A stretch of 64,000 nucleotides of DNA from Flavobacterium sp. WV_118_3. GTDB lineage: Bacteria; Bacteroidota; Bacteroidia; Flavobacteriales; Flavobacteriaceae. The notes under the pieces are model-generated. The model saw only the letters and a program-made list of their open reading frames with translations. It was not told the DNA's origin and searched no databases. The DNA is taken from assembly GCF_039778605.1 (NCBI RefSeq), contig NZ_CP156060.1:3686001-3750000 (forward strand), read 5' to 3'. This document shows, in pieces, positions 57,177 through 64,000 of this stretch. The number at the start of each line of letters is the position of its first letter. Within the stretch, counting starts at the first letter, position 1. Made by a program: the position numbers and the translations under genes.

Positions 57177-59186
57177 TTACCAATTGACATAGGTGAACTG
57201 GGTTTGCCAGGGGAGTCGTATCATACTGATTCCCCAGGATAGTTTGTCCATTAAAATATCCTGTGTTTTGCGTTCGACTATAAGTGTCTGACTGTCTACG
57301 GTTAATTTTCCGGGGCGCTGAAAAAATTCGTGTTGTAACAATCCTACCGATGCCGTTTTCATAGCACTCCAGTTTTGTTGTACGGCTCCGATTACTTTTG
57401 CTGCTTCGGTTTTCTGTTTCCGCGTAAGTTTGACATGCCGGTTAATACTTTGATGTAGTGGAAAATTACACAAATATTTTTCGAAAAGCATCGCACTTTC
57501 GGGTTGGTTGGTTTTTCCGGTAGCAATATAATGCAACAGATGAATGCCGGTTTCCGGATCGGTAAGCGTATTGGTTTTGGGATCCATCAGATTGCAATGT
57601 TTAAAAAGATTGGCAATAAAAGGATGAATAAGCACAAGTCCTGCATTTTGCACCTGAAGGTCATTTGATACCTCATCGGTTATCGGAGTTTTCTGCTGCG
57701 TTGTTTGGAATAACTCAGGAGTGATTTTATTTTGTGCTGTTTTTTGGAATTCCTCTTTATCCGGATGCTTCTGGTTGCTTTTGGATGTCTTTTCGGGCGT
57801 CTTTTCGGGCGTCTTTTCGGGTGTCTTGCCGTTTGTTTTGTTTTTTGTCTCGTTTTCTGTCTCGTTTTTTGTCTCGCGGAATGTACTATAGGGAACACGC
57901 TGTTCGATAAAAGGAAAAATAGCTTTTATTTCCTCCCAGATCTGTTCTTCGGTTTCCGGATTTTTTGCGGCTTTTAAGAGCGGTATTGTTTTGATAATCT
58001 GTTGAATTATAGTTGTTTCTGAGTTCGTAAGGTTGTTCGATACGAGTGTGGATATGGTTTGTAAAATTAAAGACCATAGCACTTTTCGATCGGCAAAAGA
58101 CGATCCGGAAAGTTGTTTTATAATAGCACTTTTAAGTGCGATTTTTAAACCTTTAGATTGTATCACGGCCAAACAGATTTGTGCGATCTGGGCATCGGTG
58201 AACTGATTGATAATGCGTTCCTGTACTTTTGGTTTTTGGATGCGGAACACAATTTTGGCTACAAAAGCTTTTTCGGAAATGATTTTTCTAAACGGAATGG
58301 ATTCAAAAATAGCAGCCGATGTTTCATTGGTATCCCACCAGGGCATAGTACCTGTTTCTATAAAATGAATAAAGGTCTGTAGCAATTTTTCGGTTTCTCC
58401 CAGAAAATGGATTCCGGGATTTTCGGTAGTCCCATAATTCGGATTCCGATCATAATTTGAGTCGTAGCCAGGATCAGAACCATAATTCGGATTTTCGTTA
58501 TGATTTTGTCCGTAGCGCGGATTTTGACCATAATTCGGATTTTGGTCATTACGCGACTTTTGGCGATGACCCTGGTTTTGGTTCTGATTTTGCCCGCGAC
58601 TTTGACTTTGTCCATTAGGCTGACCCTGATCATAGTTCGGGTTCGGGTTCGGGTTTTGCCTGTGATTTTGGTTGTGGTTGTGGTTACGGTTTTGTCCGTT
58701 ATTCAGACGTTGTTCATCATTCCAACTTGGTTCGTAATCTTGATTTTGTCCTGCAACCTGATTTTGTCCATTGTTTTCATGTTGCCTTTGGTTGTACTGT
58801 TGATCTTGGCTGTGTTTTGGGTTATAATACTGATTTAGGTTTAGATGTCGTCGCTGACTTAGATACGGATTCAGATGCTGACCCGATCCGTTTTTTATTA
58901 TTTCGGCAAGTTCCTTTCGGAACGCTGTTATAACGTCATTTTTTAATGTGCCGTTTAATATCGTATTTGATGATGATTCACAATGATTGACGTCGACAAC
59001 CAACTGTGCAATCTGTAAAGTGTGAGCCGGTATTTTGGCCTGTACAGTGTTAAGATGTTTTTCAAGTTTAGGAAAAACATCCATAGCTAAAAAGCTACTG
59101 ATATCATCTTTGATCGCATACGCCTTTTTCCTGTTGTTAACCGAAACCTCAATGATAACTTTATGTATAATATGGGTGTGTTCCAC
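57177..59186 (-). CDS. contractile injection system tape measure family protein
   Basis: 669 residues. The N-terminus (HIIHKVIIEVSVNNRKKAYAIKDDISSFL...LEKHLNTV) and C-terminus (AGLVLIHPFIANLFKHCNLMD, GIHLLHYIATGKTNQPESAMLFEKYLCNFPL, LLQHEFFQRPGKLTV, SWGISMIRLPWQTQFTYVNW) match the CIS tape-measure family (Afp14/Pvc14 type). Tape measures set sheath and tube length. Residues 103-256 are Asn/Gln/Gly/Tyr/Pro-rich and low in complexity; residues about 437-490 are a second low-complexity, charged stretch with PEKT tandem repeats. Folded modules lie between (about 258-435). It is divergent from the sheath operon. Family call is strong; the effect of the inserts is unknown. Confidence 0.85.
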   Translation of the reverse strand: MEHTHIIHKVIIEVSVNNRKKAYAIKDDISSFLAMDVFPKLEKHLNTVQAKIPAHTLQIAQLVVDVNHCESSSNTILNGTLKNDVITAFRKELAEIIKNGSGQHLNPYLSQRRHLNLNQYYNPKHSQDQQYNQRQHENNGQNQVAGQNQDYEPSWNDEQRLNNGQNRNHNHNQNHRQNPNPNPNYDQGQPNGQSQSRGQNQNQNQGHRQKSRNDQNPNYGQNPRYGQNHNENPNYGSDPGYDSNYDRNPNYGTTENPGIHFLGETEKLLQTFIHFIETGTMPWWDTNETSAAIFESIPFRKIISEKAFVAKIVFRIQKPKVQERIINQFTDAQIAQICLAVIQSKGLKIALKSAIIKQLSGSSFADRKVLWSLILQTISTLVSNNLTNSETTIIQQIIKTIPLLKAAKNPETEEQIWEEIKAIFPFIEQRVPYSTFRETKNETENETKNKTNGKTPEKTPEKTPEKTSKSNQKHPDKEEFQKTAQNKITPELFQTTQQKTPITDEVSNDLQVQNAGLVLIHPFIANLFKHCNLMDPKTNTLTDPETGIHLLHYIATGKTNQPESAMLFEKYLCNFPLHQSINRHVKLTRKQKTEAAKVIGAVQQNWSAMKTASVGLLQHEFFQRPGKLTVDSQTLIVERKTQDILMDKLSWGISMIRLPWQTQFTYVNW
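57787..57822. repeat. 12-bp tandem repeat, three units, coding PEKT
   Basis: GTCTTTTCGGGC at 57787 and 57799, then GTCTTTTCGGGT at 57811. On the coding (minus) strand each unit encodes PEKT. Unit changes keep the frame, so slippage would alter linker length only. Confidence 0.85.
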
Positions 59187-59220
59187 TGTGCAATTATTTT
59201 ATAAATCAGCTACTTCTAAA

Positions 59221-59535
59221 TTATTCGAATTCTCCGCCCCAAAAACCAGCCGGGCAACTACTATATTTTGACTTTTGCTTGGCACTTAGCCTGCAACCAC
59301 AACCTCTTATATAGCCTTCTCTTGGCATTTTTGAAACTTCTAATGTCAATGGCTCAATCCATCGTTGCGTATCGCAGCTGTTACCGTTTTTTAAAGGGCA
59401 GGCATTACAGATGGTTTCCCTTTTTGCAAAAATGTATTCGTCGCTTTCATTTGTGAATCCGATTTTAGAACGAAACTCATTAAAATGACCATCTGCAATC
59501 TCATTGCGTTTTTGGAAAAGATTTTTAAAATTCAT
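59221..59535 (-). CDS. small Cys-rich protein, function unknown
   Basis: 104 residues. Six Cys at positions 43, 46, 54, 79, 81 and 94 in the order CNACPLKNGNSC ... GCGCRLSAKQKSKYSSCPAGFW. The CxxC-x7-C and CxC-x12-C spacing suggests a zinc or Fe-S site. The second half resembles small proteins I associate with Bacteroidota phages, but I cannot name a family. It starts 34 bp upstream of the tape-measure gene on the same strand and faces the sheath operon, so it may belong to the CIS locus. Confidence 0.65.
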   Translation of the reverse strand: MNFKNLFQKRNEIADGHFNEFRSKIGFTNESDEYIFAKRETICNACPLKNGNSCDTQRWIEPLTLEVSKMPREGYIRGCGCRLSAKQKSKYSSCPAGFWGGEFE

Positions 59536-59611
59536 CGGGTTTAGTATTAAAATTATACCGCCAAAATTATTAGAAGTGATCGCATCAGGCTAGTTATTAG
59601 TCGTCTGGATT

Positions 59612-60049
59612 CTGTCTTTGCAGTAGATCGCAATTTGAAAAAAGGGATGAAATATGACGCAATCCTTTGCCGTATATGGGGATGCGGGATCGGTTTTGAG
59701 GTTCTTTTTTCTGCTAAAAGGAACTGGTATCCGACTGTTTTTTCTGATGTAAGTGCGATGAGGTGTGTTTAAAATGGTTCGTTACTTGATTTTATTAACG
59801 GCTTGCTGTAGTTGCATTGTTAATATTGTCCTTGTTTTTGGTTTGTAAACATGACTATAAGAGGTTTTTTTATTTTTTATGGTGCGAATTGCCTCTTAAA
59901 TACCTGAGTTTATGCGGGATTGCGGACTTAAAAGAGTATACGATTTTAGGAAATAGTGGTGTTTTTAAGTAGCAGTATATCAGTTGATTATAATTTATTT
60001 TTTGTCGATCGCTACAATTGGCCATAAAAACGACTTACTGCAAAGACAG
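59612..60049. repeat. 14-bp inverted repeat pair bounding 410 bp
   Basis: CTGTCTTTGCAGTA (59612-59625) and TACTGCAAAGACAG (60036-60049) are exact reverse complements. No target-site duplication is visible outside the arms. Confidence 0.8.
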
Positions 60050-60092
60050 TTTTACGGGGGCAAAATATTCGTTTTTTCGGAAGCTGTGATTG

Positions 60093-60100
60093 TATGTTTG
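60093..60100 (+). promoter_or_regulatory. -7 box for the CIS structural operon
   Basis: TATGTTTG matches TAnnTTTG and ends 27 nt before the DUF4255 start at 60128. It lies just outside the right arm of the 14-bp inverted repeat; no clear -33 TTG. Confidence 0.4.
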
Positions 60101-60127
60101 CATCGTGATAATCAACAATAGAAAATT

Positions 60128-60712
60128 ATGATTTATAAAGTATTAAAAGCATTAAGCGACAAGCTTGATCATGAACTAAATCTTCCGGATCCGGAGTACC
60201 CGGTTCAGGAGCCGGTAGATGTGGTGATTGATAGTATAGCAAAAGAAGATAATGATGCGACAGCGATTAGCAATAAGGTGGTCATTTCATTGTTGAGCGC
60301 AGAGGAAGAATCGGCATTAAAAAATACATCAAGGTATGAGCCTATTTATCCTGAAGGTTCTACGGTACCTAGAGGTTATAAGAAAAAGAATCCGACAGCT
60401 TATCTAAACCTGTATGTGATGGTTGCGGCAAACCGTGATAACTATGAAATCGCACTTCGGAATATTTCTAAAGTGATTCAAACCTTTAATACCGAGAAAA
60501 CCTTTGTTAATGAAGCACAGGGATTCAGTATTAAACTACAACTACACCCACTTCCTTTCGATCAGTTGAGTTATGTGTGGGGATTGCTTGGAGGTAAAGT
60601 AATTCCGTCTGCTTTATACAAAATAAGCATTGTGAAAATCCAAAAAGCTGGAGAAACCTATCCGGAAATAATCGAGGATATCGATATCCTAAGAAGAGAA
60701 AAAAAAATCTAA
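60128..60712 (+). CDS. DUF4255 family CIS protein (Pvc16-type cap)
   Basis: 194 residues. The opening MIYKVLKALSDKLDHELN, the YLNLYVMVAANRDNYEIALRNISKVIQTFN segment and FDQLSYVWGLLGGKVIPSALYKISIVKIQ match DUF4255/Pvc16 N-terminal proteins. In characterised contractile systems such proteins cap the end of sheath and tube. First gene of the rightward operon; the sheath gene starts 31 nt later. Confidence 0.9.
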   Translation: MIYKVLKALSDKLDHELNLPDPEYPVQEPVDVVIDSIAKEDNDATAISNKVVISLLSAEEESALKNTSRYEPIYPEGSTVPRGYKKKNPTAYLNLYVMVAANRDNYEIALRNISKVIQTFNTEKTFVNEAQGFSIKLQLHPLPFDQLSYVWGLLGGKVIPSALYKISIVKIQKAGETYPEIIEDIDILRREKKI

Positions 60713-60743
60713 GAAAATTATTATTAACCTAAATTTTTAAAAC

Positions 60744-62429
60744 ATGTCAGAATTTAAAACTCCGGGCGTTTTTATAGAGGAAATCCCAAAATTTCCACCT
60801 TCTGTAGCTCAGGTAGAAACGGCAGTACCGTCATTTATCGGCTATACCGAAATAGCGCTTGACAAAGAAAACAAACCGTTGAAAATGGTGCCTACGAAGA
60901 TCAGCTCTTTAATGGACTATGAAACGTATTTTGGAAAAGCTAACAAAGAAAGTATCAAATTACAAGATACTGTAGATGAAGGCTTGACCCTGGTAAAACC
61001 GAATGTAAAGTTCCTAATGTACTATTCCATGCAAATGTATTTTGCAAATGGTGGCGGTCCGTGTTATGTTGTTTCTGTAGGTGACTATATTGGCGATGTA
61101 ATAAACAAAAGTGATCTGAAGTTAGGTCTGGAAGCTTCTGCTTTGCAGGAAGAGTCGACAATTGTTGTTTTCCCAGATGCAACATCATTAACCGATCAGG
61201 AAGAATTTTATGCACTTTACCAGGATGCCATCGCACAGGCCGACGACTTAAAAAACAAATTCCTGATCATGGATACTTTCCTTGGGGAATCAAAAAGTGA
61301 AGATGAGGACACTGGTTTTAATACCGTTGAATTTCTTCGAAACAGAATCGGACGAACCATGCATGCTGCAGCGTATTTCCCGCATTTGAAAACCGTATTA
61401 AATTATCGTTTCAATGAAGACCTAGCAATCGATCATGCCGGATTGCAGCCAGCCAATGCTACCGGTGGTTTTTTCGCAGCTTCTGTGGCCGATTTGAACG
61501 CGTTAAGTCTTCTTGCTACGGCAGAATTGGCCGGTGCAACAGAAGAGGAACCTGCTGATACAAAAATGCTTATCGATATTGCGAAGAGTGTTATTGCTAT
61601 CGTAGAAGAAGTGAATGTTACGGCCGATGGTAAAATTTCGTTAGTGGATGTTCAATCGTATTTACAAGATCTTCAGAATGAAGACGAAGATCGTGATGTC
61701 GCTGATATTACGGGATATATTACCACTTTAAAAAATGCGGTAGATCTCGCTCAGGATAAAAAAGGAGATGCGCACGGATTAAAACTGGAAGCGTTAAAAA
61801 CTACAAATTCCGTTTTATACAATCAGATTAAAAAAGTAATCGGCGAATTAAAGGTGGTATTACCGCCGTCGGCTACAATGGCTGGAGTATATGCTAAAGT
61901 TGATGGTACACAAGGGGTGTGGAAATCACCGGCGAATTTAGGACTTAACTATGTAATCGCACCAACCCAAAAAATTTCAAACAAAGAACAGGAAAGCTTA
62001 AACGTAGATACAAACGGAAAATCGATTAATGCAATCCGCACGTTCACCGGTAAAGGAAACCTGGTTTGGGGTGCCAGAACTTTCGATTCAGAAGACACAG
62101 AATGGAAATATATCTCGGTGCGTCGTCTTTTTGATATGGTTGAAAAATCAGTTCAAAATGCAATGCAGCGATTCGTTTTCGAAACCAATGACGCCAATAC
62201 CTGGGTAAAAGCGAAAGCCATGATCGAAAATTACCTGAACCAGTTATGGATGAATGGTGCCTTAGCGGGATCAACTCCGAAACAAGCCTACTACGTTATC
62301 GTTGGTAAAGAAACAACAACTGATCAGGACGTTTTGGAAGGAAGAATGAATATCGAAATCGGTATGGCAGCAGTTCGCCCTGCAGAATTTATTGTGTTGA
62401 ACTTTTCACACAAATTACTAGAAGCATAA
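60744..62429 (+). CDS. CIS tail sheath protein, long form with insertion
   Basis: 561 residues. The contractile sheath drives the inner tube into a target cell. N-terminus FKTPGVFIEEIPKFPPSVAQVETAVPSFIGYTE and MYFANGGGPCYVVSVGDY are sheath hallmarks. The C-terminal third (GLNYVIAPTQKISNKEQESLNVDTNGKSINAIRTFTGKGNLVWGARTFDSEDTEWKYISVRRLF) is the conserved sheath core with the GARTFD motif. Residues about 225-345 contain some 85 residues absent from the paralogue at 62917, including NVTADGKISLVD, which has the spacing of an EF-hand loop. The insertion probably faces outward. Same operon as the tube gene. Confidence 0.94.
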   Translation: MSEFKTPGVFIEEIPKFPPSVAQVETAVPSFIGYTEIALDKENKPLKMVPTKISSLMDYETYFGKANKESIKLQDTVDEGLTLVKPNVKFLMYYSMQMYFANGGGPCYVVSVGDYIGDVINKSDLKLGLEASALQEESTIVVFPDATSLTDQEEFYALYQDAIAQADDLKNKFLIMDTFLGESKSEDEDTGFNTVEFLRNRIGRTMHAAAYFPHLKTVLNYRFNEDLAIDHAGLQPANATGGFFAASVADLNALSLLATAELAGATEEEPADTKMLIDIAKSVIAIVEEVNVTADGKISLVDVQSYLQDLQNEDEDRDVADITGYITTLKNAVDLAQDKKGDAHGLKLEALKTTNSVLYNQIKKVIGELKVVLPPSATMAGVYAKVDGTQGVWKSPANLGLNYVIAPTQKISNKEQESLNVDTNGKSINAIRTFTGKGNLVWGARTFDSEDTEWKYISVRRLFDMVEKSVQNAMQRFVFETNDANTWVKAKAMIENYLNQLWMNGALAGSTPKQAYYVIVGKETTTDQDVLEGRMNIEIGMAAVRPAEFIVLNFSHKLLEA

Positions 62430-62460
62430 AAATTAGATAAACAATTAAATACAGCAAATT

Positions 62461-62892
62461 ATGAATGAATATCCATTAGCGAAGTTTTCCTTCGAAGTTG
62501 ATTGGGGTGGAACAAAATTAGGTTTCACGGAGGTTACCGGAATGCAGATTGAAACTGACGTTACGGAATACAGACACGGAGCCAGCCCGGACTTCAGTAA
62601 AATCAAAATGCCGGGACTTAGAAAGTTCTCCAACATCACGTTAAAACGTGGTTCTTTCAAAGGAGACAACGAGTACTTTACGTGGTTAAACACGATCAAC
62701 CTGAATACGGTAGAGCGTCGTTCGGTTACGATTTCACTTTTAGACGAAACCGGAGCACCGGCAATTACCTGGAAAGTGAAAAACGCATTCCCGGTTAAAT
62801 TACAGGCCAGCGACTTAAAAGCAGATGCAAGTGAAGTGGCTATCGAAACCTTAGAGATCGCTCACGAAGGATTAACAATCGAAAACAATTAA
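62461..62892 (+). CDS. CIS tail tube protein (T4 gp19-like)
   Basis: 143 residues, usual tube-subunit size. YPLAKFSFEVDWGGTKLGFTEVTGMQIETDVTEYRHGASPDFSKIKMPGLRKFSNITLKRGSFKGDNEYFTWLN is the gp19/Pvc1-type signature, and the end (VKLQASDLKADASEVAIETLEIAHEGLT) is the usual strand-turn-strand. Hexameric rings stack to form the inner tube. It lies between the two sheath genes. Confidence 0.94.
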   Translation: MNEYPLAKFSFEVDWGGTKLGFTEVTGMQIETDVTEYRHGASPDFSKIKMPGLRKFSNITLKRGSFKGDNEYFTWLNTINLNTVERRSVTISLLDETGAPAITWKVKNAFPVKLQASDLKADASEVAIETLEIAHEGLTIENN

Positions 62893-62916
62893 TAAATAAC
62901 TTTTAAATTAAAACAC

Positions 62917-64000
62917 ATGAATTACAAAACACCAGGGGTTTACGTAGAGGAAATTGTAAAATTCCCACCATCAGTGGCGCAAGTAGAAACAGCTATTCCG
63001 GCTTTTGTTGGATATACTGAAAAAGGACCAAAAAATGACCCAACAAGAATTGCTTCCTTAATGGAGTATGAAACACTTTTTGGAGGTGCAGAATTTGAAA
63101 AAACAGCAATCACATTAGACGTACTTGATGAAGTAGCTACAGCAACGGTAACGGCAGCCAATTTAAGTAAATTTAAAATGTACTACGCATTGCAAATGTA
63201 TTTTGCAAATGGCGGTGGTCCTTGTTATATCGTTGCTGTAAATCATTATAAAACAGGAACTACAGTAAATGCAGTGGATTTTGACGAGTTGGTAGATGGA
63301 CTAGATCTATTGGAAAAAGAAGACGAGCCAACATTAATCGTATTCCCGGATGCTGAAGCTTTAGGACAAATCGACGCTTGTACTTTATACGTAAATTCCT
63401 TAAATCAGGCAGAAAAAATGGGTGACCGTTTTGTGATTATGGATGTAATTGGGGATCTTGAAATTTTCAGAACTAAAGTTGAAGCAACCGGTTTAAAATA
63501 CGGAGCAGCTTACCACCCAAAATTAGAAACGGTTTTGAGCTACAACTATAAAGATGAAGAAGTTGCAATTTCGACCTATAAAAAGACTCTTCCAAATGGA
63601 ACAACACAAGCTGTAGCGGATGCACCGGAACTTCTTAGTGAATTAAAAGGAAATAACTCGGCTTTATACAACCAGGCGAAAAAGGCAATTGCTGCACAAC
63701 GTGTTGTTTTAGCACCATCTTCAGCAATCGCTGGAGTTTATGCAAAAGTGGACAGCACTTCTGGAGTGTGGAAAGCACCGGCAAACATTGGTCTTAACTA
63801 TGTAATTGCTCCGGTTGAAAAAATTTCACATAAACAACAGGAAAGCTTAAACGTTGACTCTAAATACGGAAAATCAATCAATGCGATCCGTACTTTTAAC
63901 GGTAAAGGTACTTTAGTTTGGGGTGCCAGAACATTAGACGGAAACAGCAACGAATGGAGATATGTATCAGTTCGTCGTTTCTTTAACATGGTGGAAGAAT
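62917..64000 (+). CDS. second CIS tail sheath protein, 3' end outside window
   Basis: At least 361 residues; the frame is open to the window edge. ATG 62917 begins MNYKTPGVYVEEIVKFPPSVAQVETAIPAFVGYTEKG, closely parallel to the first sheath. MYFANGGGPCYIVAVNHY and GLNYVIAPVEKISHKQQESLNVDS are also shared. It lacks the insertion of the first sheath, joining DEEVAI directly to a short ELKGNNSALYNQAKK segment. Two or more sheath paralogues also occur in PVC/Afp systems (Pvc2-4), where they have different positions along the particle. Confidence 0.93.
   Translation, partial: MNYKTPGVYVEEIVKFPPSVAQVETAIPAFVGYTEKGPKNDPTRIASLMEYETLFGGAEFEKTAITLDVLDEVATATVTAANLSKFKMYYALQMYFANGGGPCYIVAVNHYKTGTTVNAVDFDELVDGLDLLEKEDEPTLIVFPDAEALGQIDACTLYVNSLNQAEKMGDRFVIMDVIGDLEIFRTKVEATGLKYGAAYHPKLETVLSYNYKDEEVAISTYKKTLPNGTTQAVADAPELLSELKGNNSALYNQAKKAIAAQRVVLAPSSAIAGVYAKVDSTSGVWKAPANIGLNYVIAPVEKISHKQQESLNVDSKYGKSINAIRTFNGKGTLVWGARTLDGNSNEWRYVSVRRFFNMVEE

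What the first reader, a model, noticed from the sequence alone, without database searches (positions are those of the whole stretch)
57177..64000. Start of a contractile injection system locus in a flavobacterium
Tape measure, DUF4255 cap-type, two sheath and one tube genes are together here. Established knowledge: these families define extracellular (eCIS) or related contractile injection systems; AlgoCIS from Algoriphagus is a studied Bacteroidota example. Divergent placement of the tape measure with a Cys-rich small gene is a layout I do not recall from PVC/Afp. No T6SS-type TssB/TssC sheath pair is seen.
Basis: partly seen in the sequence, partly recalled or inferred. Interest (0 to 1): 0.8.

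Follow-up and report, generated by a model that had tools for sequence, protein, structure and literature searches.

The report
Toxin-injecting particle with phage-like release switch
The window ends in the first genes of a complete bacterial toxin syringe that, here and in Chryseobacterium relatives, sits beside phage-type genes that look built to burst the producing cell under stress, plus toxin and likely antidote genes, so it is probably a weapon against other bacteria.

Summary
The window edge cuts a ~54-kb eCIS locus of AlgoCIS type with cap, sheaths, tubes, spike, PAAR, gp25, baseplate, ATPase and toxin; no head genes were seen in the scans. The divergent tape-measure/Cys layout marks one clade (this Flavobacterium, F. 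supellecticarium, Chryseobacterium). A Dokdonia locus, from the sister lineage, has an intermediate layout. The clade lacks the AlgoCIS cap adaptor. It carries a CI/LexA-type S24 repressor with cleavage motifs (29 of 29 genomes), a single-copy operator-like palindrome, a 52-56-aa ORF, a holin-like gene and an endolysin that varies; the holin was absent from 39 of 39 genomes with the older layout. Toxins share one N-terminal family with 17 C-terminal types in 27 proteins; 24 of 27 have a small gene directly behind. A 14-bp box 41-43 nt before a promoter element marks locus operons: 4-8 sites in 14 of 14 clade genomes, 0 in 10 others. Away from the locus it marks orphan tail-fibre cassettes (13 of 13 Chryseobacterium sites) and, here, a satellite ATPase-toxin cassette. 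Most likely: a RecA-induced, lysis-released, antibacterial eCIS regulon with satellite parts. Induction, lysis and killing are inferred.

The parts
57177..59186 (-). tape measure protein (CIS_TMP), 669 aa, with an N/Q-rich insert
   Evidence: composition
59221..59535 (-). 104-aa Cys-rich protein of unknown function
59562..59569 (-). -7 promoter element TAATTTTG of the Cys/tape-measure operon
   Evidence: element type recalled
59612..59625 (-). box TACTGCAAAGACAG facing the Cys/tape-measure operon
60036..60049 (+). box TACTGCAAAGACAG facing the cap operon
60093..60100 (+). -7 promoter element TATGTTTG of the cap operon
60128..60712 (+). cap protein (Pvc16_N)
60744..62429 (+). sheath 1, 561 aa
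62461..62892 (+). tube protein, copy 1; copy 2 lies 1.4 kb on, beyond the window edge
62917..64000 (+). sheath 2, 455 aa; continues to 64284 beyond the window; the rest of the locus is listed in the full report with genome coordinates

Best explanation
This is an AlgoCIS-type extracellular contractile injection system that has been turned into a tailocin-like, lysis-released weapon against bacteria. Normally the S24 repressor sits on one operator overlapping a promoter and blocks the rightward operon (56-aa protein, holin-like protein, endolysin). When DNA damage activates RecA, the repressor cleaves itself as CI and LexA do. The operon then makes an activator, for which the 56-aa protein is the best candidate. 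It acts through the TACTGCAA(AG/CT)AC(A/T)G box 41-43 nt upstream of the -7 element and switches on the structural operons, fibres, ATPase and satellite cassettes together. Particles assemble, the AAA ATPase helps to load the large toxin, and holin and endolysin burst the cell. Released particles bind other bacteria by one of several fibres and inject a toxin with an exchangeable tip, while kin survive through the small gene behind it. Shown: gene content, conservation, phylogeny, motif geometry and genome-wide specificity of the motifs. Inferred: cleavage, activation, lysis, loading and target.
For: Complete eCIS gene set. S24 and holin found together in 28 of 32 genomes searched, one copy of the holin each; holin in 0 of 39 genomes with the older layout. 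AG site, GDSM and V/IKR in 29 of 29 S24 proteins, the ORFs having been picked by GDSM and one HTH motif. Perfect palindrome at the S24 promoter in 27 of 29, followed directly by TATATTTG, and exactly one per genome in 9 of 9 clade genomes against 0 of 2 without the locus. RecA found, LexA_DNA_bind not found in this genome. Box geometry: 51 of 51 AG-type boxes and 33 of 35 CT-type boxes. Composite signature 4-8 sites in 14 of 14 clade genomes, 0 in 10 others, 0 for the reversed control in 24. Distal sites mark fibre cassettes in 13 of 13 Chryseobacterium cases and an ATPase-toxin cassette here. 27 toxins: one N-terminal family, 17 tips, 24 with a gene of 134-382 aa within 35 nt. In Dokdonia the gene behind the toxin is a Tdi1/GAD-like T6SS immunity protein.
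Against: The holin is weak by family: LydA-type Pfam match at 19.6 bits under a cut-off of 28.4, no PHROG match, no match in the phage collection. The 56-aa protein, which I first read as helix-turn-helix, is modelled as one long helix and has no Pfam match. The two Flavobacterium carry an imperfect palindrome and CATATTTG in place of TATATTTG. Of nine immunity candidates scanned only the Dokdonia one matches an immunity family; the 276-aa protein matches none. A 60-kb stretch downstream of the locus core in G085 has toxin and ATPase but no box at up to 2 mismatches. The toxin of this genome has no box of its own. Endonuclease toxins could also act on eukaryotes.
Confidence: 0.62

Rival explanations
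1. An AlgoCIS-like eCIS aimed at eukaryotes such as protists or invertebrates; the repressor and lysis genes only serve release, and the small genes behind the toxins are accessory rather than immunity genes.
For: The best-studied eCISs act on eukaryotic hosts (abstract and passages). The 276-aa protein matches no immunity family. Three fibres carry DUF285/LRR domains, which name no target.
Against: 17 toxin tips in 27 proteins with a small gene directly behind in 24; the same tip and small gene recur as a pair in another genus and the small gene also stands alone there; a Tdi1-type immunity gene in the sister lineage.
Confidence: 0.2
2. The system is regulated and released by lysis, but not by DNA damage: the S24 protein responds to another signal, or the box is read by an unlinked host regulator.
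For: Cleavage is inferred from motifs only. The proposed activator is modelled as one helix. Other eCIS loci are linked to GerE/LuxR-type regulators (passages).
Against: All three cleavage motifs are kept in 29 of 29. The box occurs with the S24-holin module and was not found in the local Dokdonia or other eCIS regions, nor was the small ORF.
Confidence: 0.2
3. A decaying prophage tail cluster without present function.
For: Phage-type repressor and lysis genes are present.
Against: No head or integration genes in the scans; the two tube genes differ at 36 nt but at no amino acid; the release module is kept in 29 genomes.
Confidence: 0.02

Closest known systems
AlgoCIS of Algoriphagus machipongonensis (eCIS subtype Ib)
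   Same: Sheath, Alg12 baseplate protein, short cap protein, AAA ATPase, cargo (abstract and part 1 of the Results of PMC8894135).
   Different: The clade lacks the cap adaptor that older-layout relatives keep; two to three sheath genes and usually two near-identical tube genes; divergent tape measure; repressor-holin-endolysin module. The AlgoCIS paper has no occurrence of holin, repressor or immunity in its main text.
R-type tailocins (R-pyocins)
   Same: Cleavable repressor, dedicated lysis genes and probable bacterial targets (passages).
   Different: Core proteins are eCIS-type: sheath 2 scores 467 bits to AlgoCIS and 25 bits to the pyocin sheath. It also carries an ATPase and a large toxin; R-tailocins kill by membrane depolarisation (passage).
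Afp of Serratia entomophila
   Same: eCIS with lysis genes nearby: a review places an endopeptidase-holin-lysozyme cassette upstream of Afp (passage).
   Different: Here the lysis genes lie inside the locus next to an S24 repressor; targets are probably bacteria, not insects.
Bacteroidales injection systems (BIS)
   Same: Bacteroidota; one architecture has two sheath and two tube genes (passages).
   Different: The passages I saw mention no S24-holin module or divergent tape measure; no BIS sequence was compared here.
Orphan VgrG or Hcp islands of type VI secretion (recalled, no call)
   Same: Scattered modules that serve one injector.
   Different: Here the satellites are eCIS tail fibres and an ATPase-toxin set, tied to the core by a shared promoter signature.

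Membership tests
eCIS (PVC/Afp/AlgoCIS class) | sheath, tube, gp25, baseplate J, VgrG-type spike, PAAR, cap, tape measure, AAA ATPase in one locus | tested here: met
eCIS (PVC/Afp/AlgoCIS class) | sheath closer to eCIS than to phage or pyocin sheaths | tested here: met
   AlgoCIS 467 bits, All3325 (7b5h) 455, Pvc3 235, T4-type gp18 about 36, pyocin 25
eCIS (PVC/Afp/AlgoCIS class) | no T6SS membrane complex | not tested
   no family search for TssJ/L/M was run
eCIS (PVC/Afp/AlgoCIS class) | free extracellular particle | not testable with these tools
   needs electron microscopy
AlgoCIS as such | cap adaptor (Alg16B type) after the cap gene | tested here: not met
   HMM of 47 adaptors hits none of the clade loci; its 4 control hits belong to the training set; ties the adaptor to AlgoCIS
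R-type tailocin | dedicated lysis genes | tested here: met
   amidase; holin-like, by weak family match and conservation
R-type tailocin | self-cleaving repressor over an activator (PrtR/PrtN logic) | tested here: inconclusive
   cleavage motifs kept, operator; activator unproven
R-type tailocin | tail without loaded toxin cargo | tested here: not met
   AAA ATPase and 1421-aa toxin in the locus; loading itself not shown
polymorphic toxin-immunity system | constant N-terminal part, varying toxin tip, small gene directly behind | tested here: met
   27 toxins from 25 genomes, 17 tips, 24 with a gene within 35 nt
polymorphic toxin-immunity system | small gene neutralises the toxin | not testable with these tools
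   only a Tdi1/GAD-like family match in Dokdonia

The most novel reading that the evidence does not exclude
An eCIS that works as a chromosome-wide DNA-damage regulon: one phage-type repressor and one promoter signature coordinate a core particle, a lysis module and movable satellite cassettes of tail fibres and ATPase-toxin-immunity sets far from the locus, so that a culture releases a mixed population of particles with several targets and payloads against competing bacteria.
Probability: 0.5. Interest if true: 0.88.

Novelty: new variant of a known kind. Interest (0 to 1): 0.8.

Why it matters
How eCIS particles leave the cell, what triggers them and how producers survive antibacterial cargo are open; Geller et al. 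2021 call the missing immunity genes an intriguing mystery (passage). This clade of Chryseobacterium and Flavobacterium, many of them named cultured strains, offers testable candidates on all three points: a repressor, lysis genes and toxin-immunity pairs. The promoter signature also pointed to orphan fibre and cargo cassettes that a survey of gene neighbourhoods would miss. No paper in the library names both 'contractile injection system' and Chryseobacterium.

Tried and rejected
Prophage or myophage: rejected, no head genes in the scans. Helix-turn-helix reading of the 56-aa protein: made from its sequence, not supported by the AlphaFold2 model; kept only as candidate activator by position and conservation. 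Concerted evolution of the tube genes: within-locus nucleotide identity 0.959 against 0.807 between loci, but only 14 of 25 first copies are closest to their own second copy (3 of 28 loci dropped for length), so gene conversion is likely but not uniform. Phage source of the holin: none in the phage collection; one IMG/VR contig at 73%, not read. The S24 repressor is 41% identical over its length to one of a Leeuwenhoekiella phage, which fits a phage origin. Defence-system names: the ATPase matches PADLOC IetA and TRIP13 models, taken as shared AAA homology. NCBIfam added only tube-family names. No tRNA in 80 kb around the locus. The Cys-rich protein's model is of middling confidence (pLDDT 74); no fold search was run. 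The tape measure and S24 gave no match among solved structures.
Full report
Observation. The window lies at 3686001-3750000 of a 3.85-Mb single-contig genome; window coordinates are genome coordinates minus 3686000. Sheath 2 and the Alg12 homologue are nearest AlgoCIS among solved structures.

Parts beyond the window, in genome coordinates, + strand unless stated: sheath 2 3748917-3750284; tube copy 2 3750316-3750747; third tube-like gene 3750750-3751190; DUF5908 3751331-3751573; CIS_tube 3751573-3752304; spike 3752309-3754054; PAAR 3754138-3754428; gp25 3754574-3754984; Baseplate_J 3755076-3758246; Alg12 homologue 3758276-3761068; 1050-aa, 88-aa and 1082-aa proteins 3761081-3767895 (the first matches a PKD-domain chain of a structure that also holds Alg12); S24 repressor 3768056-3768718 (-); palindrome 3768785-3768797; 56-aa ORF 3769072-3769242; holin-like 3769838-3770212; Amidase_2 3770232-3770876; 141-aa protein with C-terminal membrane helix 3771141-3771566; box 3771693-3771706; fibre-like array 3771892-3790293; box 3790493-3790506; AAA ATPase ORF 3790532-3791905 (the box geometry suggests a start near 3790595, inferred); toxin 3792061-3796326; 276-aa putative immunity gene 3796333-3797163.

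Layout and history. Six of 80 genomes searched, the own one included, have a CIS_TMP gene. Five loci in four of the others (G006 twice, G024, G030, G054) have the tape measure downstream on the same strand; only G052, a Chryseobacterium, shares the divergent Cys/tape-measure layout. A scan of genome contigs with an alignment of three spike proteins gave 108 relatives; the best 80 were kept. Thirty of the 80 are F. supellecticarium and Chryseobacterium-type loci; five of these are cut short before the cap. In all 25 that reach it the tape measure is divergent, and the Cys-rich gene was labelled in 23. A baseplate-J tree of 80 rows (quick method, no bootstrap) puts this set with the window genome in one group of 30 rows (SH-aLRT 99), two Dokdonia rows being sister (100). 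The Dokdonia locus read in full has one strand and an intermediate order: Cys, tape measure, ATPase, toxin, small genes, cap, cap adaptor, sheath, tube, sheath, tube and so on. The Cys-rich gene gave strong matches in 8 of 46 chosen genomes, all of this sublineage, and one weak match; the 66 homologues in the protein database include other Flavobacteriia whose context I did not see. The cap adaptor, identified by its match to the AlgoCIS protein, is not found in the clade by an HMM of 47 adaptors; its four control hits were in the training set, and five clade loci do not reach that place.

Release module. An S24 repressor lies on the opposite strand before the holin. The holin was found in 28 of 32 genomes searched and a strong S24 match in the same 28. 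The four without the holin are three Dokdonia genomes, which have only weak S24 hits, and a MAG known here from a 6-kb eCIS contig; L062 was not held. The holin was absent from 39 of 39 genomes with the older layout (40 of 47 such loci were given, one not held; one of the 39 is a Dokdonia already counted). S24 was not searched in those 39, that Dokdonia excepted. All 29 S24 proteins (28 plus the window genome) keep an AG site, GDSM and VKR, IKR in one; the script picked the ORFs by GDSM and one HTH motif. A perfect palindrome CGAACANTGTTCG followed by TATATTTG lies at the S24 promoter in 27 of 29; the two Flavobacterium have CGAACAAAATTCG and CATATTTG. TTTG precedes it in 5 of 6 promoters printed; TTTG and TAnnTTTG are the Bacteroidota promoter elements (recalled). 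The perfect form occurs exactly once in 9 of 9 clade genomes searched and not in 2 of 2 without the locus. A 52-56-aa ORF between S24 and holin is present in 29 of 29, and another small ORF before the holin was seen in 23 of 29 by a loose pattern, of which at least two look like false hits. RecA was found in this genome, LexA_DNA_bind was not. Endolysins vary: Amidase_2 here; a 146-aa lysozyme-like protein beside a lipoprotein with a C-terminal membrane helix in five of six Chryseobacterium loci followed downstream and in G052; another pair in the sixth. The names lysozyme and spanin-like are recalled from sequence and hydropathy, not from a family call.

Promoter signature. The Cys-cap intergenic region carries TACTGCAAAGACAG on both strands, facing outward: both copies at one mismatch or fewer in 24 of 25 complete loci, one copy in the other. 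In this genome the exact 14-mer occurs only at these two places. In 26 loci, 51 of 51 such boxes are followed by TAnnTTTG at 42-43 nt. A second form, TACTGCAACTAC(A/T)G, precedes fibre, toxin and ATPase genes; 33 of 35 with enough sequence have an 8-mer ending in TTTG at 41-42 nt (two of 37 dropped for short flank). Sites are homologous between species, so counts across species are not independent; those of different operons within one genome are. The composite pattern gives 4-8 sites in each of 14 clade genomes, none in 10 others (two Dokdonia, a Flavobacterium with two other eCIS loci, seven more), none reversed in 24. It was built from locus sites of several of these genomes, so the distal sites are its fair test. 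Against it: no box at up to 2 mismatches in the 60 kb downstream of the core of G085.

Satellite cassettes. All 13 composite sites on another contig or more than 0.6 Mb from the locus in the 12 Chryseobacterium genomes were fetched (11 stretches, nine genomes; three genomes have none). In 11 of 11 stretches the next sizeable gene has the fibre anchor of the main locus, the weakest match being 23 bits, and in 10 a gene over 700 aa follows. In the window genome the site at 118176 precedes an eCIS-type ATPase (487 aa, 227 bits), a 1221-aa toxin-like protein with PG_binding_1, and a 208-aa gene; the site is conserved in F. supellecticarium. The toxin tip and the 208-aa protein match toxin and following gene of two Chryseobacterium main loci (408 and 306 bits; 359 and 249), and the 208-aa protein also matches a gene standing alone in the G052 array at 216 bits. 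The other distal site (2392789) precedes a DUF4760 protein and is not among the sites of F. supellecticarium; it may be chance.

Toxins and target. 27 toxins from 25 of 29 genomes share one N-terminal family and fall into 17 C-terminal classes; 24 of 27 have a gene of 134-382 aa starting within 35 nt. Four genomes gave none: the stretch was cut or my filter missed it, as for the 1357-aa toxin of G103. The tip here is a DNA/RNA non-specific endonuclease (32 bits, cut-off 27) with RGH kept; others match weakly or not at all, one to Ntox1 below its cut-off. In Dokdonia the gene behind the toxin is Tdi1/GAD-like. This favours bacterial targets and does not prove them.

Print. I saw listings, abstracts or passages, and part 1 of the Results of the AlgoCIS paper. 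Geller et al. name GerE/LuxR-type and BTAD regulators and a few toxin-immunity pairs; a review places a lysis cassette upstream of Afp. I met no S24-controlled eCIS, no such promoter signature and no satellite eCIS fibre cassettes in searches, in an open-licence library only.

Noticed in passing
L019:16597-17109 (genome 956597-957109) and L020:7870-10938: A second CIS_TMP fragment (170 aa) without other CIS genes in 40 kb, and 11 kb on a 1022-aa protein weakly similar to the toxin (70 bits) with a 120-aa gene behind it: perhaps a remnant or an orphan cassette.
   Followed up: partly
57177-59186: The tape measure carries an N/Q-rich insert (35 N and 27 Q in residues 111-255); the frame is 669 aa here and 695 aa in F. 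supellecticarium, so the insert may vary in length.
   Followed up: partly
62461-62892 and genome 3750316-3750747: Two tube genes encode the identical protein but differ at 36 of 432 nt; near-identical pairs recur across the clade.
   Followed up: yes
L004:2647-5895 (genome 3764647-3767895): The C-terminal end of the 1082-aa PKD protein looks like a Hint/intein-type domain by eye (recalled; Pfam named only PKD-type and Y_Y_Y domains).
   Followed up: no
L004:11831-18537: Three fibre-like genes carry DUF285/BspA-type leucine-rich repeats behind one shared N-terminal anchor; the 2026 catalogue of eCIS receptor-binding domains has no occurrence of these names in its main text.
   Followed up: partly
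L025:12081-15776 (G006 contig C8): A Flavobacterium with two other eCIS loci; in one of them the tape measure frame is 1231 aa long.
   Followed up: no
L220 (IMGVR_UViG_2751185727_000001): A 47.9-kb contig in the viral collection encodes the holin at 73%: possibly one of these eCIS loci filed as a virus.
   Followed up: no
L005:15216-16488 (genome 3797216-3798488): A HipA-type pair lies directly after the putative immunity gene, on the other strand.
   Followed up: no
L204:1391-2104 (genome 2392891-2393604): A DUF4760 protein behind the second distal promoter-signature site.
   Followed up: partly
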